From IMG/VR virus record IMGVR_UViG_3300017989_000439, positions 1 through 23,899 of that record: a stretch of DNA of 23,899 nt. The stretch is one strand, 5' to 3'. This stretch comes from a virus. This document shows, piece by piece, positions 1,967 to 14,940 of the stretch. The stretch's first letter is position 1; every line of letters starts with the position of its first letter. Under the pieces are notes generated by a model, which made no database searches, was not told the origin of the DNA, and saw only the letters and a list, made by a program, of their open reading frames with translations. The position numbers and the translations under genes were made by a program.

Positions 1967-2512
1967 TCAGACAGTAATCTTGGTCTGTTTTATTTCAAAA
2001 ACTCCGAGTAAATCCATCGGTACTTCTTCACCCTCTGCTAATTGCTCACGGACAAAGGCTCCGAGTGTTTGAGCATGTACAGAAGTTTTCCTTTTTACCT
2101 GTAGGTTTTTCTTCTCAAGCTGAGCCGTCAATTTATCAGCCTTCTTGTCTTCACCCTTACCAAAACTGACTGTGACATCATTCTTGATAAGAGACTCATG
2201 GCCATTATCTTTCAGCCATTTAAAAGCCTCAGCCTGATTCTTCTTTGCGATCGATGCTGTGATCTTTGTCTCCACTGAAACCTGAGCACCTGACTCAAGT
2301 TTAAATGAAGCCATTCCGATTTCATCCATTAAACTTGGAATGTCTTCCATGCTTGTCTGCTGAAGTGCTTTCTTGGCATCAGCGACTTGTGCCGTTAGTT
2401 CCTCGAATCTTTCTTGCTGTTCGAGTTGCAGCTTAGCAAGGTCAGCTAGCCTTGTCAACTTTGCTTCGTCGACAGGTAACTGTTCATCTTCAAAAAAATC
2501 AACATCAGTCAT
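1967..2512 (-). CDS. Conserved-looking phage replication-module protein, function unknown
   Basis: 181 residues; I do not recognise a named family. Residues 15-52 form a likely coiled coil (leucine/glutamate/glutamine-rich, LADLAKLQLEQQERFEEL). The middle (60-125) looks alpha/beta, with the phrase AFKWLKDNGHESLIKN. The C-terminus (150-181) has TLGAFVREQLAEGEEVPMDLLGVF. The start overlaps the helicase stop as TAATG, with an AAAGGAG SD inside the helicase 3' end, so translation is probably coupled. Lying between the SNF2-type helicase and the ssDNA-binding-like protein, it is probably an accessory replication or recombination factor. Confidence 0.6.
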   Translation of the reverse strand: MTDVDFFEDEQLPVDEAKLTRLADLAKLQLEQQERFEELTAQVADAKKALQQTSMEDIPSLMDEIGMASFKLESGAQVSVETKITASIAKKNQAEAFKWLKDNGHESLIKNDVTVSFGKGEDKKADKLTAQLEKKNLQVKRKTSVHAQTLGAFVREQLAEGEEVPMDLLGVFEIKQTKITV

Positions 2513-3993
2513 TAGCTTCTCCTTTCTGAATCACCAGTTATCTTGTCGGCGATCTTTCTTGATTTATGTAATATCCCTCTGACCTTCTCATCTACACTGA
2601 CTTCATTACCATAGCTGACAACAAGGTCGATATAAACGACCGGATGCTTCAGACCTATCCTATGAGCTCTATCTTCTGACTGATACCTTTGCTCATAAGA
2701 GAAAGGATTAGAATAATAGAAAACAGTTTCCGCAGCATGCAGAGTAATTCCAATACCTGATGCCTGTTGGCCAACTAAGAATCGGCAAGTATCATCGGTC
2801 TGAAACCTGTCTACTGAATTATCTCGTGCATCCCCTGTTACACCACCATGAATCTGCACAATTGACTGATGACCAAACTTCTCGCCGAGTGTCTGAACAA
2901 TCAAGTCAATCTCAAATCTGAACTTAGCCCAGATAATTGTCTTCCCGTGATAGTCATCTGTCACAGCATCAATTAAAAAGTTGAGCTTGGGGTTAGGGCC
3001 CGGAATTGCCTGACCACTGATTTGCGTGGTTGGGTCAATTTCTTCTGAAGGTATAAACCCTCCGGTAATCTGCTGCAACCTAAGGAGCTTAGTTATTTGA
3101 TGAGGTGCTAGAATTTCTAAGTTATCAAACTCAAGTATTCCATGCTCATCCATTCGATTATACAGTTTGCTCTGAGCCGGTGACATTGGCAGACTAATTG
3201 TTTTATAAATCTTCGGAGGTAAGTCCAGACACTCAGCCTTAGTCCGTCTGAATGAATGAGGCTTAATCCTTCTAGCAAGATCATCCAACCTCATGTGCTT
3301 GACAAGTTTTTCAAACTGTCTTGTCTGTCCGTTCTGGACTAAGACTTCTGTTTCCCAAATTCCGTAGTGATGTTTGAAAGCGTAATAAGAACCAAAGCCA
3401 AGGTAGTCAGCATCGAGAAATTTAAATTGTGTAAACAGATCAAACGGAGACTGAGTAACAGGGGTTCCAGTCAGTATCCTGCGATAAGGTGCTAGTCTAC
3501 CTAACTTGATAATGTTCTTCGTACGCTTGCTCTTAGGAGTTTTAATCCTTGAAGATTCGTCTACAACAAGCATACACTTTCGTGACCTGAGAAATTTCTC
3601 TGCGTCTTTTAAAGCATTGATTGATGTGGACAGAGCTTCAATATTAATTGCAAAAACACACAGACCCTCGTGCCTGAGAAATTCTTTCCAAAGTTTTTGA
3701 TAACTTTTGTTTTTCCTTTTAACTGTGTCGTATGCAAAGAGCATTGGATCTGCTCCGTCAGTCAAGTGAACCGGACATTCTCTGCGAATCCAGTTTGTGT
3801 GAACTCCGTTAGGAGCAAAGACCAGAAGACCAGCAATCTTATCCTCGTAAAACAGATAGGCGGCATTGTCCAAAATAACTTTGGTTTTTCCTAACCCCTG
3901 TTCTAATAAAAGTCCGTAAGCTCGTCTATCTTTTGATAGCTCAAGCGCTTCGGTCTGATGAGCATAAGGTTCTGTTACCATATAATCTTCCAT
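2512..3993 (-). CDS. SNF2-family DEAD/DEAH-like helicase (ATP-dependent DNA translocase)
   Basis: 493 residues from the ATG at 3993. The open frame extends 61 codons further upstream, but that part runs through the previous gene, while the chosen start has AAAGGAG 7 bases ahead and lies just after the previous stop. Helicase motifs in order: EQGLGKTK (Walker A, 31-38), VVDESS (motif II, 143-148, DESS instead of DEAH), LTGTPV (motif III, 174-179), TIIWAKF (motif IV, about 352-358), GIGITLHAA (motif V, 413-421) and QSEDRAHRIG (motif VI, 438-447, with both arginines). All residues needed for ATP hydrolysis appear present. The size is minimal for the SNF2 core, with no accessory DNA-binding domain. 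It probably remodels or unwinds DNA during phage replication or recombination. Confidence 0.9.
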   Translation of the reverse strand: MEDYMVTEPYAHQTEALELSKDRRAYGLLLEQGLGKTKVILDNAAYLFYEDKIAGLLVFAPNGVHTNWIRRECPVHLTDGADPMLFAYDTVKRKNKSYQKLWKEFLRHEGLCVFAINIEALSTSINALKDAEKFLRSRKCMLVVDESSRIKTPKSKRTKNIIKLGRLAPYRRILTGTPVTQSPFDLFTQFKFLDADYLGFGSYYAFKHHYGIWETEVLVQNGQTRQFEKLVKHMRLDDLARRIKPHSFRRTKAECLDLPPKIYKTISLPMSPAQSKLYNRMDEHGILEFDNLEILAPHQITKLLRLQQITGGFIPSEEIDPTTQISGQAIPGPNPKLNFLIDAVTDDYHGKTIIWAKFRFEIDLIVQTLGEKFGHQSIVQIHGGVTGDARDNSVDRFQTDDTCRFLVGQQASGIGITLHAAETVFYYSNPFSYEQRYQSEDRAHRIGLKHPVVYIDLVVSYGNEVSVDEKVRGILHKSRKIADKITGDSERRS

Positions 3994-3994
3994 C

Positions 3995-4210
3995 TTATTC
4001 TCCTTTATATCTTCGTCTGCCGTAATTCGATTCTGAATAAGTTCCTGTCCTTGTCCATCCATCTTCGAGTGTCCATTGCAGAACTGGATAGCTCTTCCAT
4101 GTTTCTTCAGGCCCTGATGGATAATATGGTTTGGGCTCATAGAAGAAACCAAAATACAGCAGGCCGAAAAATACAACCAGTAACATCATCAGGCAACCAG
4201 TCTTCGTCAT
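3995..4210 (-). CDS. Small single-pass membrane protein, coupled to the amidase gene
   Basis: 71 residues from the ATG at 4210, which overlaps the amidase stop as ATGA. A GTG two codons upstream is also in frame but less likely. Residues 7-24 are a hydrophobic segment (CLMMLLVVFFGLLYFGFF), followed by a Pro/Tyr-rich stretch and a polar tail ending in several arginines. There is no lipobox, because the only Cys lies at the start of the hydrophobic stretch. The tight coupling to a peptidoglycan amidase suggests a membrane partner of lysis (holin-like, anchor or spanin-like), but nothing in the sequence decides this. Confidence 0.6.
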   Translation of the reverse strand: MTKTGCLMMLLVVFFGLLYFGFFYEPKPYYPSGPEETWKSYPVLQWTLEDGWTRTGTYSESNYGRRRYKGE

Positions 4211-5037: not shown

Positions 5038-5333
5038 AATTCAGTAAAACCATCTTCATCTAACAAGTCAGAAATATCTAATGCGTCTGCATCAAATTCA
5101 TCGTCTTCAAAAGGCTCGTCCATTTCACACCTGCAGTTATGGTGGTCAGGCGGAACCACCGGACCGATAACTGCAAAGACTGGTTCTGACTGAGGATAAG
5201 TATACTTTCTTTTCTCGCAGTCATCACACATCGTTGAGCGATACCTTTTAACCAGATCATTTGCATGTCTTTCATGAACCATGACTTTTGTAAAGTGTCC
5301 GCGTGTTCTTTTGATCTTGAATTTTTTTATCAT
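5034..5333 (-). CDS. Small protein resembling the cysteine/histidine end of a MuF domain
   Basis: 99 residues from the ATG at 5333, which overlaps the HNH gene stop as TAATG and has AAGGAG at normal distance. A start six codons upstream is less likely. The N-terminus is very basic (MIKKFKIKRTRG). The middle carries C36-x2-C39 and then PPDHHNCRC (61-69). The PPxHxxCR arrangement is the signature end of the Mu gpF-like domain, and the same pattern occurs in the portal-MuF fusion of this phage (PPLHFQCR, residues 695-702). The last 30 residues are strongly acidic. The motif may simply bind zinc in a small regulator. Whether it derives from a MuF domain is inference. Confidence 0.6.
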   Translation of the reverse strand: MIKKFKIKRTRGHFTKVMVHERHANDLVKRYRSTMCDDCEKRKYTYPQSEPVFAVIGPVVPPDHHNCRCEMDEPFEDDEFDADALDISDLLDEDGFTEL

Positions 5334-5914
5334 TAGATTTCTCCTTCCCAAACTATATCAGGCAATCGAGACAAGTCCCCAACAATCGAGTCTCCTTTCC
5401 TGAAGATATACTTCGCAAAATGTACGAGATGTTTATCAGCATTACATTCAACACAACAAACCGCCAAGTTCCAAGGACGGTGTTCTCCATTGTCAGATAG
5501 TAGTGGAATAAGATGATCGAAACCACGAGGCTTTGACGGAGTGCAGGATGTCTGGACTTTGGTACCGCAATAAATACACTGTCCATTGTCCCTTTCAACA
5601 ATTTGCTGTAACTCTTCTTTTGTAACTCGGCCAGCTCTGATCTTAGCTTCTCGTTTCTTCCGATGCTTCTTGGCAACGTCCGGATTGTCTGAGTGCCATG
5701 CAGCCCACATACCGAGATATTTCCTGCGATTCCGTTCATATTTTTCTGCTCTCTTCCGTGCAAGCTCTTCTTTATTTTCCTCTCGATACTGAGGATTGTA
5801 GCTTGTCATATATGCCTGAGACCAATTCCTTCTACATACTGAACAACGTCTGTGGCCATCACCTTCTACAAAATGGTCTGAGCCACCACATATTCTGCAT
5901 TTGTATGGTCTCAT
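5333..5914 (-). CDS. HNH endonuclease with N-terminal zinc ribbon
   Basis: 193 residues. The N-terminus has CRICG (C6, C9) and CSVCR (C24, C27), a zinc ribbon likely to bind DNA. A long basic helical linker (45-105) follows. The HNH core runs from GQCIYCG (C113, C116) through FDHLIPL (D133-H134), WNL (N149) and CCVECN (C154, C157), with K161 and H162 completing the beta-beta-alpha metal fold. The start overlaps the previous stop as ATGA and has only a weak SD. It could be a homing-type nuclease (no intron or intein seen nearby) or a replication/recombination nuclease. Confidence 0.8.
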   Translation of the reverse strand: MRPYKCRICGGSDHFVEGDGHRRCSVCRRNWSQAYMTSYNPQYREENKEELARKRAEKYERNRRKYLGMWAAWHSDNPDVAKKHRKKREAKIRAGRVTKEELQQIVERDNGQCIYCGTKVQTSCTPSKPRGFDHLIPLLSDNGEHRPWNLAVCCVECNADKHLVHFAKYIFRKGDSIVGDLSRLPDIVWEGEI

Positions 5915-6105
5915 GCCATTGTTTGTTCTTTCACCATAAGGCCTGAGACATATCTTCTGAATGCTGGTTTCTTCATAGTCTTTGACTTGCGTACTCGAGT
6001 ACTTGACTTTGTTAACAGGGAGTAACCTCCATGTCCGTCAGACTCGACTTCCCTCCCTGTTACTCGGGCCCATTGTCGGATCTTATTCATTGAGAAGATT
6101 TTCAT
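5911..6105 (-). CDS. Small basic protein, unknown
   Basis: 64 residues, rich in Lys and Arg (STRVRKSKTMKKPAFRR in the middle), with an N-terminal amphipathic stretch MNKIRQWARVTGREV. It overlaps its neighbours by 4 bases on both sides (ATGA), with AAGGAA ahead of the start inside the thyX 3' end. Both overlaps support a real, coupled gene. The charge suggests nucleic-acid binding; no family recognised. Confidence 0.55.
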   Translation of the reverse strand: MKIFSMNKIRQWARVTGREVESDGHGGYSLLTKSSTRVRKSKTMKKPAFRRYVSGLMVKEQTMA

Positions 6106-6836
6106 TTGCTTTCCTTGTTGACCAGCATTCCAACTGAGCCGTATTCGCAGGTGTAATAAGGAACACCGAGATTGTCAACACCGATTTCTTCGAAGTCATC
6201 AAAGACAACAGGTACAGCATTCTGAAGTTGACGAAGAAGGTTACCCATGCAGGATCTGATTTCCCAATGAGCAGCTTTCTGCGTTCTCATCATAAAGATG
6301 TGACGCCATTGCCTGAAGTTAGTCGAGGCAATTATCTCGGCCTTAAGTCCAATAGGCAGAAACTGTCTTGCGTATCGAGGTTGAATCTTTTCGCTGATTA
6401 GTCCTCGGTAGAATGCCTCGATCAGTTCAACAAGTTCTCTTGCAGTCATTGCGTGATTGCCTGTTTCATCAAGAGGAACTTCTTGGTCAGGATTAATATT
6501 CGGTGGTATGATAAAGGTCACGTCAGACTCATCGACAAAGTGAGTTGATTCCTGAGAGAAAGCCATGGCCACTCGATGTCTGACAAGCTCATGTGTCACA
6601 CCTCTTGATGGATTAACAAGTTTGACTGGAACATGACTGTGCTCAAGCACTGACAAATGTCCCCGCTTCAAAAGCATCTTGCAGAATTTCTCGGCTGTCT
6701 CGTAGGTTATCGGACCTTTAATAGATTGATAACAAGTTCTGCCCGCTCGCTCGATAACAAGCAGTTGGTCATGCAGTTCCTTGTTGCTCAGAAGTATCTG
6801 AATATTCTTTTCAGTTCCTTCAAGTATTGTTGCCAT
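6102..6836 (-). CDS. thyX: FAD-dependent thymidylate synthase ThyX
   Basis: 244 residues. Makes dTMP from dUMP using methylene-THF, FAD and NADPH, supplying the phage with thymidine. The fold markers are GHLSVLEH (59-66), the ThyX signature starting LVRHR (84-88) and ending QESTHF (95-100), and the dUMP/FAD-binding half YARQFLPIGLKAEI...NFRQWRHIFMMR...AHWEIR (155-194). Two oddities: eight residues separate RHR from the signature serine (RHRVAMAFSQES) where the classical motif is RHRx7S, and the usual RY after it reads HF. The start overlaps the previous gene by 17 bases and has AAGGAG 11 bases upstream. It is the only nucleotide-metabolism gene in the window. Confidence 0.92.
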   Translation of the reverse strand: MATILEGTEKNIQILLSNKELHDQLLVIERAGRTCYQSIKGPITYETAEKFCKMLLKRGHLSVLEHSHVPVKLVNPSRGVTHELVRHRVAMAFSQESTHFVDESDVTFIIPPNINPDQEVPLDETGNHAMTARELVELIEAFYRGLISEKIQPRYARQFLPIGLKAEIIASTNFRQWRHIFMMRTQKAAHWEIRSCMGNLLRQLQNAVPVVFDDFEEIGVDNLGVPYYTCEYGSVGMLVNKESK

Positions 6837-10595: not shown

Positions 10596-12006
10596 CGAAT
10601 TTGACTTTCCAGTCAAGCGTTGGGAATGGTCGATGATGAAGGAACTTGGCTTTGAACCGCATCCCGGTCAGATAACTTTTTACCAAGTTATTGAAATGTA
10701 CAGAAGAATATTCTGTGCCAGTGGCCGAAGATGGGGTAAGTCAATGTTCTTGTCTATTCTTATCTGGCTGCAATGGCAGCGAATGCAATGGACACTGCCT
10801 AATCCCAATGATCCTTTTCAATGGCCTAGAAAGATTTTACTGGTAGCACCTCAGGACGATCAGCTAGATGTTATCTTCGATCAAGTTGCTGGTTTCGCTG
10901 ATGATCGAGGTATCCCACTTACAGTTGATAGACGAGCCAAGGGCAGCAAGCAATTAAGAACTCCTTGGGGTAGCGTGTTCAGAGGTATGACCGGTAAGAA
11001 TCCGCGTGCTGGTCGAGGATATTCATGGCAATATGTTTTTGCTGACGAAGCTCCTCATGTAGATCATCCACGCCAGCTTTACTATGAAGTCTTGTTTCCT
11101 ACAATGGCTGAATCAAAAGGAAAGTTTGTAGGGATAGGAACACCTGATGCACCCGGAACCTTAGCTCATCGATGGAAATTAATGGGCGAGAATCCAGATA
11201 ATAAGGAATGGGGTTTTACTGCAGGTCCATCAGTTGAGAACTGGCATATTCCTTGGCTAGCAGATGAGATACAAGCTATGATCGATGCAGGTGTTCCAAT
11301 GGACATTATCGATCGCGAGTGGAATGCAAAGTTTGTGCCAAGGTCTGGTGTTGTTTATAAAGAAGCTCAGGACTGCATTATGTCTCTGACAGAGTGTAAG
11401 GAAATAGCTTCTCTTTTATTTAAGCAAGGAACTTGGTACCGGTTTATAGACTTCGGTTTCGCTAATCCTTTCGCTTGTTTGATTGTTTGCAAGCTAGGTG
11501 AGACTTGGTATATCTGGAATGAATACTATCGAGCCAGAAGAACACCGACCGAGCATGCGATGGTCTTAGCTCAGATGGACAATATCTTTCCGTTCGAAAT
11601 CAATGTTGCAGATCCAGCTGAGCCGGGAACTATTAAAACATTAGCTACATGGAGACATCCACAGACTAACGCCAGACTCGGTGGTCGATGGATAAGGAAC
11701 TTTGACAAGCCGCCGATTATTGACTCGATAGATTCAGTCAGAGCAAAGATGGCAATGGGACAAGTTAGAATTCATCCTAGGTGCGAGGAACTAATTGCTG
11801 AATACGGCATGGAGAAATATCCAGAACAAAGGAACATGCAGAACTTTTCAGAGAAACCGGTTGATGCAAATAACCATGGAACATCGGCTTTCAGATATGG
11901 TAACTGGTATGTCTTTGGTAAGGTTACTGACTTGACTCCGCCTAAGCCTTCTGAGTTTGATACAATGAGAGAATCAGATGCAGCATTACAGGGGTATCAT
12001 GTATGA
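10549..12006 (+). CDS. terL: Terminase large subunit (packaging ATPase/nuclease)
   Basis: 485 residues; powers DNA packaging into the prohead and cuts the concatemer. Walker A is GRRWGKS (59-65), Walker B is YVFADE (162-167, D166-E167), and the coupling motif is GIGTPD (195-200). The C-terminal RNase-H-like nuclease shows FIDFG (D301), VADPAEPG (D355) and VDANNHG (D439), the three expected acidic ligands. The length is normal for the Mu gp28/Terminase_6 kind. The start has no clear SD and lies inside the small-subunit gene, so coupling probably drives it. The stop overlaps the portal start as ATGA. Confidence 0.93.
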   Translation: MSTLESKSEDLLCQADEFDFPVKRWEWSMMKELGFEPHPGQITFYQVIEMYRRIFCASGRRWGKSMFLSILIWLQWQRMQWTLPNPNDPFQWPRKILLVAPQDDQLDVIFDQVAGFADDRGIPLTVDRRAKGSKQLRTPWGSVFRGMTGKNPRAGRGYSWQYVFADEAPHVDHPRQLYYEVLFPTMAESKGKFVGIGTPDAPGTLAHRWKLMGENPDNKEWGFTAGPSVENWHIPWLADEIQAMIDAGVPMDIIDREWNAKFVPRSGVVYKEAQDCIMSLTECKEIASLLFKQGTWYRFIDFGFANPFACLIVCKLGETWYIWNEYYRARRTPTEHAMVLAQMDNIFPFEINVADPAEPGTIKTLATWRHPQTNARLGGRWIRNFDKPPIIDSIDSVRAKMAMGQVRIHPRCEELIAEYGMEKYPEQRNMQNFSEKPVDANNHGTSAFRYGNWYVFGKVTDLTPPKPSEFDTMRESDAALQGYHV

Positions 12007-14825
12007 CAGACACACCTCAACATAGTAAGCAGTTAATGAAGGAATTATCCAACGTTAATACTGCCCACGATGTCTTCTCACGGATGACTGCTTCACGGTC
12101 TCCTGATAAAATTATTTTACAAAGAGGACGAGGGGTACTTGATTATTACGATGTAATGGTTGATGCTGATCCTGTATTAGCTGGTCTGTTAGAAACTCGA
12201 GTTGATGCTGTGGCTGGTCTTGGTTGGGATGTAGTCTCTGCGTCAGATGATGATAGCGATGAAAAGATTGCCGAGTTTATTCGCTTTGGTTTCGGTCAGC
12301 TTAAACGATTTAAACAAGACCTTGAACAAATACTTTCTGCAGCTCGAACCGGTTTCTCAGTATGCGAAATAGTCTGGGACTTAGTTACATGGGAAGGTCA
12401 GCAAAAGTGGGTACCGGTTAAACTGCTTTCGAGAAGGCCTGAGCGATTTACTTTTGATGAAGAATATAATCTGAGACTTAAGACACGGACCAATTCATGG
12501 GATGGCGAAGAACTTCCTCCAAATAAGTTTATCCATCATATCTTCAGGCCAAGGTACGAGAATCCTTATGGCACAAGTCTGTGCACAAGTGTCTGGTGGA
12601 TGTGGTGGTTTAAACACCATGGAATGGCATGGTGGCTGAAGGCTGCAGAACGTGGTGCAGTTGTTACTCCTATTGGATACTATCCAGAAGGCTGGAATGA
12701 AAATCAGATAGAAGACTTTAAGAAATTCCTCAGAGGCATTATGGGTGATTCCTATGGCGCCTTACCTGAAGGATCTAACGTAGACTTTCCTCAGATTAAA
12801 ATTGATCCTGAGTTTGCATCAGCTTTACGAGAAGCTTGTAACGAGGAAATGATTTATCGTGTATTAGGTGGCACACAGTCTTCAGCAGGTAATGAAGGAT
12901 CAAGGGCAAAAGCTCAGGTCCATGAACACAGATTCCAAGAACGTAAAGAAGCTGATGCTGAATCTGTAATGGCTACTATCAATGACCAGTTGGTTAAGCC
13001 GATGGTCCTGCTTAATTTTCCTGAACCACAGGACTATCCTTTCTGGCGGTTGTTATATGATCCTGAGAAAGATACAAGTGCACTTGCTGATGTTCTTATC
13101 AAAGCTGCAAAGATTAAGATTCCAGTAGCTGTTGGTGATGCTGCTGAGATGTTGAATTTGCCGCTTGCTGAAGAGGGTGAACAGTTAATTGAAATGACTC
13201 AGGCACCAAGTCCGTTTATGCAGGATGTTCCTGCTGGTAAAAAGAAAGATGATCCTCAGGATCCAGATGAAGAACCGGATGATAATCCAGATGAGGGGGA
13301 AGCTGTAAACCCTAAGATATACCGCCTGAGTTTCTCGGCTCGTAAAAGAGCGGCTAAGTATATTGACAATCAACAGAAGCTGATTGACGGTGCCATCAAA
13401 AAGAGTAAGCCGGTTATGGATGATATTCTCAAGCAGGTTAAGTCATGGGTTAAACGACAGAAGACTATTGAGAACGCTGCCGAGAATGCTAACAGTTTTA
13501 AACTGGATTCTGATAAGCTTGCTGCCTATCTGCTTGATGCCCGTTATTATTCTATGCTAATGGGTTTCCATGACTTTACCAATGAGCCCGATGCCACCGT
13601 CAGGTTTAATCTTAAGAAATGGTTCTATCAGAAATTTATAGCTAAGTATGAATTCGAGCCTCTGCCATTTCAGGATGCTATTAAATTATTTGAAGATCGG
13701 TCTGTTATGGATCGTGAAGATTTTGATACTCTATTATCATTTGAAAGAAGGAACGCATTGACAGCCGCTGGTATGTCTGCCGAAACAATTGAGCATACAG
13801 TCCGAAGTCTTTTGGTAAGTGCTTTAAAAGAAGGTATGACATTACCTGATTTCATAGGCAACTTACAATTGCCAAATGTAGTCCATGCAGAAAATATCTT
13901 CAGGACTAACATGAGTAGTGCCTATAACAACGGACACATGGAAGGTATGTTTTATCCGGGTTATGAAGACACAATTGCAGCTATCGAATTTATAGCGATC
14001 ATGGATGGCCGCGAGACTGACATTTGTCGCGAGAGACATGGCAAACTGTACAAGCTAGAAGATCTTAAGACTGCAGGTGTTGCACCACCTCTTCACTTCC
14101 AATGCAGATCAACTATAGTAGAAGTCTTTGCTGATGAATTAGAGGGTCGAGAAATTTCGGGTACTCCCTCTGTTCCTGCACAATCTGGCTTTGGAGAATT
14201 TCAACCAGTCTTAGAACATCCGCCTGAACCTCAGTCAGGTATAGATATTTTTGTTAGTATGGTTCCTCACCTTGAGAAGCAACCAGATTTTGTAAAAGAG
14301 ACTTGGGAAGAAATACGAAAATTAGCAGAGAAATCTGGTACTGGATTAGAAGAGATTGAGCATGGAGCTATATTTGACAGAGATGGTTTTCTACTTGAAG
14401 AAACAGGTATTGTTAAAGGCGATCATTCAAGTGTAAGATTACCTATGCCTGTCGGTGCTGAAGAAACAATTATTCATGAGTATCCGGGTTTGATGACTAC
14501 ACATTCTCATCCATTAGATACAACATTCTCGGCCGAAGATATGATTAACATGTGGGCTAACCCGATGGAAACTGTATCTGTGGTTGTAGGTGAATATTCA
14601 ATACAGGCTCTTAAATACCGCGGCTTTGATGTACAGACTGAAGTAATGAGTAATCCGATTAAATATCAAGCTGAGGTACAAAAGATATATGATGCGGTAA
14701 CTGAGATAATGGAGAAGAGAGATGTAGGCATTAGTGACGCAATGGAAATCTATATTAATGAACATCCAGAAGACTGGCAGTATCAGCGAATTGGCTGGGA
14801 TGAGGTGTTAGATTATGGCGGATAA
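12003..14825 (+). CDS. Portal (DUF935/Mu gp29-like) fused to MuF and a JAMM/JAB-like C-terminal domain
   Basis: 940 residues, about twice a normal portal. Residues 1-400 are a Mu gp29-like portal (DYYDVMVDADPVLAGLLETR; FRPRYENPYGTSL at 181-193; VLGGTQSS at 287-294). An acidic Asp/Pro linker (415-434) follows. Residues 440-715 are a MuF minor head domain: AENIFRTNMSSAYNNGHMEG (629-648), then ICRERHGKLY (C675, H679) and PPLHFQCR (695-702). A Pro-rich linker leads to a third domain (745-940) containing H834-S-H836-P then S843-x2-D846, with E786 about 48 residues earlier, the layout of a JAMM/MPN metalloprotease. The H-to-S spacing is six residues, one shorter than the classical seven. Portal and MuF form the DNA gate and prohead-initiation complex; the third domain could be an injected or processing enzyme. 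Confidence 0.85.
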   Translation: MTDTPQHSKQLMKELSNVNTAHDVFSRMTASRSPDKIILQRGRGVLDYYDVMVDADPVLAGLLETRVDAVAGLGWDVVSASDDDSDEKIAEFIRFGFGQLKRFKQDLEQILSAARTGFSVCEIVWDLVTWEGQQKWVPVKLLSRRPERFTFDEEYNLRLKTRTNSWDGEELPPNKFIHHIFRPRYENPYGTSLCTSVWWMWWFKHHGMAWWLKAAERGAVVTPIGYYPEGWNENQIEDFKKFLRGIMGDSYGALPEGSNVDFPQIKIDPEFASALREACNEEMIYRVLGGTQSSAGNEGSRAKAQVHEHRFQERKEADAESVMATINDQLVKPMVLLNFPEPQDYPFWRLLYDPEKDTSALADVLIKAAKIKIPVAVGDAAEMLNLPLAEEGEQLIEMTQAPSPFMQDVPAGKKKDDPQDPDEEPDDNPDEGEAVNPKIYRLSFSARKRAAKYIDNQQKLIDGAIKKSKPVMDDILKQVKSWVKRQKTIENAAENANSFKLDSDKLAAYLLDARYYSMLMGFHDFTNEPDATVRFNLKKWFYQKFIAKYEFEPLPFQDAIKLFEDRSVMDREDFDTLLSFERRNALTAAGMSAETIEHTVRSLLVSALKEGMTLPDFIGNLQLPNVVHAENIFRTNMSSAYNNGHMEGMFYPGYEDTIAAIEFIAIMDGRETDICRERHGKLYKLEDLKTAGVAPPLHFQCRSTIVEVFADELEGREISGTPSVPAQSGFGEFQPVLEHPPEPQSGIDIFVSMVPHLEKQPDFVKETWEEIRKLAEKSGTGLEEIEHGAIFDRDGFLLEETGIVKGDHSSVRLPMPVGAEETIIHEYPGLMTTHSHPLDTTFSAEDMINMWANPMETVSVVVGEYSIQALKYRGFDVQTEVMSNPIKYQAEVQKIYDAVTEIMEKRDVGISDAMEIYINEHPEDWQYQRIGWDEVLDYGG

Positions 14826-14940
14826 AATATCACCGGGTTACAAAGACGATAGCACTTTACAGATGGTCCAACGAATGGAAGCTGAGGGTGCTAGTATCGA
14901 AGAAATAAAAGATGCGATCAAGGAGAAACGCAATGCCTGA
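14815..14940 (+). CDS. 41-residue protein between portal and protease genes
   Basis: The frame from the ATG at 14815 to the TGA at 14938-14940 overlaps the end of the portal gene by 11 bases and the start of the protease gene by 8. GAGG lies about 10 bases upstream. The peptide (MADKISPGYKDDSTLQMVQ, then two charged helices ending EIKDAIKEKRNA) is regular, soluble and helical. It fills the whole gap and contains the next gene's SD (AAGGAG). No family recognised; small capsid-assembly or regulatory peptides occur at such positions. Confidence 0.6.
   Translation: MADKISPGYKDDSTLQMVQRMEAEGASIEEIKDAIKEKRNA

What the first reader, a model, noticed from the sequence alone, without database searches (positions are those of the whole stretch)
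14238..14822. Portal-MuF protein carries a third, JAMM/JAB-like metalloprotease-type domain
After the portal and MuF domains the protein continues about 195 residues with THSHP followed by S843-x2-D846 and an upstream E786, the ligand layout of JAMM/MPN enzymes. The sequence shows the motif directly. It is established that MuF domains of some phages are fused to C-terminal toxin or effector domains and that JAB-type domains occur in such polymorphic systems. Inference: each virion carries portal-linked enzyme copies that could act on the prohead, or on host proteins after ejection. The H-x-H-x6-S spacing is one shorter than the classical x7, so activity is uncertain.
Basis: partly seen in the sequence, partly recalled or inferred. 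Interest (0 to 1): 0.72.

Follow-up and report, generated by a model that had tools for sequence, protein, structure and literature searches.

The report
Capsid-portal protein carrying a JAB-type enzyme domain
A phage portal protein carries at its end a divergent JAB-type (zinc hydrolase-like) domain that recurs on unrelated phage head proteins, usually followed by a tiny overlapping gene, so it looks like a swappable enzyme cargo that the virus particle delivers rather than a structural part.

Summary
Confirmed: the 940-aa ORF 12003-14825 is portal (residues 47-384), MuF (599-705) and a 195-aa C-terminal domain with E786, H834-x-H836-P and S843-x2-D846. The domain belongs to a divergent phage JAB family assembled here (49 distinct relatives). 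A profile built without the window finds it at 7e-10; E/H/H/S/D are kept in 49-50 of 50 rows, and the 'odd' x6 spacing is the family's commonest (26 of 47). Family model (pLDDT 95) and window model (pLDDT 77) match JAB/MPN structures best, individually weakly; HHalign to E. coli RadC gives 83%, rank 1 of 124. Curated JAB models are not passed. The domain is accessory: a 60%-identical portal-MuF (L002) lacks it, and it recurs on other portal and minor-capsid types. Fused genes are followed by an overlapping small ORF far more often than other long genes (17/32 vs 7/87), as reported for MuF toxins; the window has a 41-aa one, L002 none. Best reading: a virion-delivered effector of MuF polymorphic type with a RadC-like JAB hydrolase. 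Substrate and release from the portal are unknown; the window copy lacks a near-invariant Arg.

The parts
12003..14825 (+). fused portal-MuF-JAB gene, 940 aa
   Evidence: single open frame; Pfam hits
12141..13154 (+). Portal_Mu domain, residues 47-384
   Evidence: PF06074 E=4.1e-75
13797..14117 (+). MuF domain, residues 599-705
   Evidence: PF04233 E=2.8e-10
14118..14237 (+). Pro-rich linker, residues 706-745; the domain-less relative L002 ends at the matching point
   Evidence: translation and L002
14238..14822 (+). divergent JAB-superfamily domain with C-terminal helical extension, residues 746-940
   Evidence: family HMM E=6.9e-10; AF2 and Foldseek
14358..14360 (+). E786 codon, predicted catalytic Glu
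   Evidence: E in 49 of 50 rows
14502..14510 (+). H834-S835-H836, predicted metal ligands
   Evidence: both His in 50 of 50 rows
14529..14540 (+). S843-x2-D846, predicted active-site Ser and metal-ligand Asp
   Evidence: S in 49, D in 50 of 50 rows
14815..14940 (+). 41-aa small ORF overlapping the stop by 11 bases, SD-like GAGGT upstream; candidate partner or immunity peptide
   Evidence: absent from L002
14933..16225 (+). candidate head maturation protease/scaffold gene, 430 aa
   Evidence: phrog_976 head maturation protease 5e-17; start chosen by AAGGAG

Best explanation
Residues 746-940 are a divergent, probably metal-binding JAB-superfamily hydrolase domain, added as an exchangeable cargo module to the C-terminus of a fused portal-MuF protein. 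Shown by sequence and models: membership in a phage JAB family with intact E-HxH-S-D residues, accessory presence, and repeated fusion to different portal, MuF and minor-capsid proteins. Inferred: the domain sits inside the capsid at the portal, is freed by the head protease (or otherwise released), enters the host with the DNA and acts on a host target, as proposed for MuF polymorphic effectors. The small overlapping ORF downstream would encode a partner or immunity peptide that restrains it in the producing cell.
For: HMM without the window 6.9e-10, above all 5,000 motif-kept shuffles; ligands in 49-50 of 50 rows; family model pLDDT 94.8 with JAB/MPN best matches; window model best match RadC; viral library led by phage minor capsid and uncharacterised proteins; HHalign to RadC 83%, rank 1 of 124; L002 lacks the domain; fusions to three other head architectures and MuF+JAB in one frame in 16 of 48 records; copy near T4SS genes on a plasmid; overlapping small ORF 17/32 vs 7/87, as for MuF toxins.
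Against: Foldseek PDB E-values are 0.004 or worse with TM below 0.5; no curated JAB model is passed. The window copy is divergent: R859 and E857 replaced. The domain is covalently tied to the portal and no cleavage is shown. Small-ORF counts are not phylogenetically independent, and the commonest small ORF also occurs without JAB. No activity, metal or toxicity data.
Confidence: 0.6

Rival explanations
1. The domain is an assembly factor: a portal-tethered protease that trims portal, scaffold or other head proteins during prohead maturation.
For: Location in the head gene block and on the portal; standalone relatives also lie among head-tail genes.
Against: A separate head maturation protease candidate is the next full-size gene (phrog_976 5e-17); L002 has the same head genes without the domain; the family also occurs beside conjugation genes.
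Confidence: 0.15
2. The window copy is a decayed or purely structural remnant of the family, with the fold but no activity.
For: R859 and E857, near-invariant in the family, are replaced; insertions around residues 800-830; low family score of about 34 bits.
Against: All metal-site residues are intact and the frame is open to the stop.
Confidence: 0.12
3. The domain is a virion-delivered nuclease or nucleic-acid processing enzyme of RadC type rather than a peptidase.
For: RadC is the best structural match of the window model and matches the family profile; most members have HNHP as RadC does. RadC and Tox-JAB are argued to be nucleases (PMC5512222, PMC3482391).
Against: The family model's best matches are deconjugases and MPN proteins. 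A nuclease role for RadC-type JABs is itself a hypothesis.
Confidence: 0.3

Closest known systems
MuF polymorphic toxins of phages (Jamet 2017, PMC5576092; MuF delivery in Zhang 2012, PMC3482391)
   Same: MuF domain with a variable C-terminal enzyme-like domain and a small ORF right downstream; metallopeptidase C-domains are reported in 20% of them.
   Different: Here MuF is itself fused to the portal, and the C-domain is a JAB-type family not named in the main texts read; toxicity and lysogeny are unknown.
RadC clade of JAB domains in polyvalent proteins (Iyer 2017, PMC5512222)
   Same: JAB fold; most members of the new family share HNHP with RadC; RadC is the top structural match of the window model.
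   Different: No PF04002 match over cut-off; x6 rather than x7 spacing; C-terminal helical extension; RadC-MuF or RadC-portal fusion not found described in the passages read.
Tox-JAB-1 and Tox-JAB-2 (DUF4329) polymorphic toxin domains (PMC3482391)
   Same: E, H-x-H, S, D pattern at the end of delivered proteins.
   Different: No DUF4329 match over cut-off (one member at 4.9e-5); the table lists other secretion routes, not MuF.
JAMM/MPN+ deconjugases (PfJAMM1, BubCD, AMSH)
   Same: Ligand layout; nearest PDB folds of the family model.
   Different: No curated JAB model passed, spacing differs, and no ubiquitin-like or E1/E2 partner gene was identified in the part of the window annotated.

Membership tests
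JAB/MPN(+) (JAMM) superfamily | Glu, H-x-H, Ser and Asp active-site residues | tested here: met
   E786, H834, H836, S843, D846 present and conserved in the family
JAB/MPN(+) (JAMM) superfamily | MPN/JAB fold | tested here: inconclusive
   best PDB matches are JAB/MPN for both models but E 0.004-0.03 and TM below 0.5; HHalign to RadC supports
JAB/MPN(+) (JAMM) superfamily | classical H-x-H-x7-S-x2-D spacing | tested here: not met
   x6 in the window and in 26 of 47 relatives
JAB/MPN(+) (JAMM) superfamily | bound zinc and hydrolase activity | not testable with these tools
   no coordinates or assay available
Pfam Prok-JAB, DUF4329, RadC | score over the curated cut-off | tested here: not met
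   window no match; three members or fewer match, all below cut-off
MuF polymorphic toxins | MuF domain plus C-terminal extension carrying an enzyme-type domain | tested here: met
MuF polymorphic toxins | small ORF (<150 aa) directly downstream | tested here: met
   41-aa ORF 14815-14940 in the window; 28 of 32 fused relatives by the wider rule, 17 of 32 overlapping
MuF polymorphic toxins | encoded by a temperate phage | not tested
   record is a 24-kb linear piece; no lysogeny genes were searched for systematically
MuF polymorphic toxins | toxicity neutralised by the small protein | not testable with these tools
   needs expression

The most novel reading that the evidence does not exclude
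A capsid-delivered JAB family that strips protein conjugates (for example ubiquitin-like tags of Bil-, Bub- or CBASS-type systems) from incoming phage or host proteins: a virion-borne counter-defence deconjugase with its own small partner gene.
Probability: 0.1. Interest if true: 0.85.

Novelty: new variant of a known kind. Interest (0 to 1): 0.52.

Why it matters
It adds a JAB-type hydrolase to the enzyme cargoes mounted on phage MuF and portal proteins, as a family that no Pfam, NCBIfam or PHROGs model caught at threshold here. It has a clear active site for mutation and a small adjacent ORF to test as its partner or inhibitor. JAB enzymes are central to bacterial ubiquitin-like pathways, some of which are antiphage, so a virion-borne JAB makes a concrete counter-defence hypothesis testable.

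Tried and rejected
The first tblastn hit (MT835985, E=2) lies antisense in a contig of sugar-metabolism genes and was dropped. Searches with the window domain alone found no relative in viral or genome contigs; relatives came through a THSHP-x4-FSxxD pattern hit (L005), then L006/L007 and their alignments. Sequence search of solved structures gave nothing useful. Both scans of genome contigs gave no relative. I considered the Cys-rich small ORF (about 10 loci) as a JAB-specific immunity protein and rejected that: it also follows a MuF with a HExxH-type C-domain (Flavobacterium phage lotta8-2) and occurs away from MuF in Brevibacillus phage Jenst. A zinc-pocket distance check was not possible because model coordinates are not exposed.

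Full report
Observation. The ORF 12003-14825 (+) encodes 940 residues. Pfam finds Portal_Mu at 47-384 (4e-75) and MuF at 599-705 (3e-10). A comparable motif arises in 5 of 200,000 shuffles of the protein. Directly, the domain has only a sub-threshold Prok-JAB match on the motif (E=0.066) and no useful NCBIfam or PHROGs match.

Relatives. The domain alone found nothing in viral or genome contigs. A THSHP-x4-FSxxD DNA pattern hit one 112-kb viral contig (L005). Its last domain led by tblastn to Aphanizomenon phage CL131 gp044, a standalone 226-aa protein among head-tail genes (L006), and to a human-gut phage MuF protein (L007). L007 in turn led to Dorea phage DO134P1, MuF plus JAB in 502 aa. Alignments without the window then gave several dozen IMG/VR loci, 49 distinct domains in all.

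Is the window a member? An HMM built without the window finds it at 32.9 bits, E=6.9e-10 among 262 ORFs of the window; the next ORF is at E=2. With the enlarged set and the motif-pattern relatives also removed, the ORF scores 29.8 bits, E=7e-9. The domain alone scores 34.1 bits and exceeds all 5,000 shuffles that keep residues 833-846 in place (best 30.8), so residues outside the motif contribute, although the motif carries much of the score. E786 is E in 49 of 50 rows, H834 and H836 are His in 50, S843 is S in 49, D846 is D in 50. Part of the His conservation is ascertainment, because several scans used THNH-containing patterns; E, S, D and G795 lie outside those patterns. The x6 spacing is the commonest, 26 of 47; longer forms of 15-18 occur. 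The window deviates at R859 (Ser; Arg in 49 of 50) and E857 (Thr; Glu in 44 of 50).

Fold. The window domain folded with 21 sequences gives pLDDT 77, pTM 0.73. Its best PDB matches are RadC 2qlc (E=0.004, prob 0.92), with BubCD, AMSH and PfJAMM1 following. The viral library gives 21 matches at E<=0.001, led by phage minor capsid and uncharacterised proteins, with a phage metalloprotease among them and RadC and MPN proteins just below. A representative (L017, 43 sequences) gives pLDDT 94.8, pTM 0.89; its ten best PDB matches are BubCD, PfJAMM1, Npl4 MPN and AF2198 (E 0.026-0.14, TM below 0.5). HHalign of the family with E. coli RadC gives 83%, E=8.8e-6, rank 1 of 124 targets, the best other target being at 5%. 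Curated Prok-JAB, DUF4329 and RadC models touch single members below cut-off. I conclude: JAB superfamily, divergent, with RadC-like features; not a member of the curated families.

Architecture and mobility. L002, a contig whose portal-MuF is 60% identical over residues 1-736, stops at residue 745 and its next gene begins at the stop: no JAB domain. MuF and JAB share one open frame in 16 of 48 relative records (frames matched by record and open-frame length). L017 is Phage_portal+MuF+JAB, L015 Portal_Mu+JAB, L030 Phage_min_cap2+JAB. Standalone copies lie among head-tail genes (L006), and one Hymenobacter plasmid copy lies beside a Fic protein and close to a T4SS coupling protein. So the domain is an accessory cassette attached repeatedly to different DNA-delivery proteins.

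Downstream ORF. Of 32 fused JAB genes (ORF of 400 aa or more) with downstream sequence, 17 have a small ORF (35-149 aa) whose start overlaps the stop, against 7 of 87 other long ORFs in the same loci (Fisher p=4e-7, rows not phylogenetically independent). The small ORFs form at least three recurring kinds: Cys-rich about 70 aa, acidic 46-51 aa, and 57-59 aa. The window has a 41-aa ORF at 14815-14940 overlapping the stop by 11 bases, with an SD-like GAGGT. Jamet et al. report small downstream ORFs for 89% of MuF toxins and 25.5% of short MuFs and read them as immunity genes (PMC5576092). For a prophage-encoded polymorphic toxin of Bacteroides, two immunity proteins are shown experimentally (PMC11699363).

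Mechanism. Most likely (about 0.6) a virion-carried effector: the portal/MuF part places the domain at the portal, and release and ejection (inferred; the neighbouring candidate head protease, phrog_976, could cut the Pro-rich linker) bring it into the host, where a metal-dependent hydrolase acts. Whether it cuts peptide or isopeptide bonds, or nucleic acid as argued for RadC and Tox-JAB (PMC5512222, PMC3482391), is open. A prohead-maturation role is less likely because the phage has its own protease candidate and L002 does without the domain. Decay of the window copy cannot be excluded given R859S.

Novelty. MuF effectors, including metallopeptidases, and JAB toxin domains are each known. A JAB family on MuF and portal proteins is not named in the passages read; supplements could not be opened. 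The family is rare among isolated phages: three of 50,697 records in two searches with typical members. New variant of a known kind.

Noticed in passing
L005 3259-11202 (-) (IMGVR_UViG_3300037424_002358): 2647-aa phage protein with about a dozen copies of a linker motif RGGPGSGHFGHEGRPGEVGGSAPG between small domains, ending in a JAB domain; the motif may be a virion-targeting or processing signal.
   Followed up: no
L015, L017, L021, L028, L030, L043, L046, L057, L068 downstream of the JAB gene: Recurring Cys-rich protein of about 70 aa (SPxCxxCxH...CxAFPxxIPxxIWxGxNDHxxPxPGDxGIQF), often overlapping the MuF-JAB stop; also after a MuF with another C-domain (L085) and away from MuF in Brevibacillus phage Jenst (L086).
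   Followed up: partly
L006, L012, L013, L018, L055, L066: Standalone JAB genes of the cyanophage type are followed by a conserved larger gene with EFDAPVxxLTA...GxLLSxGxFYxY, 200-453 aa, a possible functional partner.
   Followed up: no
L033 2836-3408 (Hymenobacter sp. DG01 plasmid NZ_CP040937.1): Standalone member of the JAB family beside a Fic protein and close to a T4SS coupling protein gene.
   Followed up: partly
L085 3425-4975 (Flavobacterium phage vB_FspM_lotta8-2 gp028): MuF protein with an unannotated C-terminal HExxH (HEFGHVI) zincin-like stretch, followed by the Cys-rich small protein.
   Followed up: no
window residues 857 and 859 (14571-14579): The family's near-invariant E-x-R after the active-site helix is T-V-S in the window; role unknown.
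   Followed up: partly
window 2512-4176, 5333-5914, 6102-6836 (-): Minus-strand genes: helicase (phrog_62), HNH/endonuclease VII-like, thymidylate synthase; late genes run on the plus strand from about 10110.
   Followed up: no
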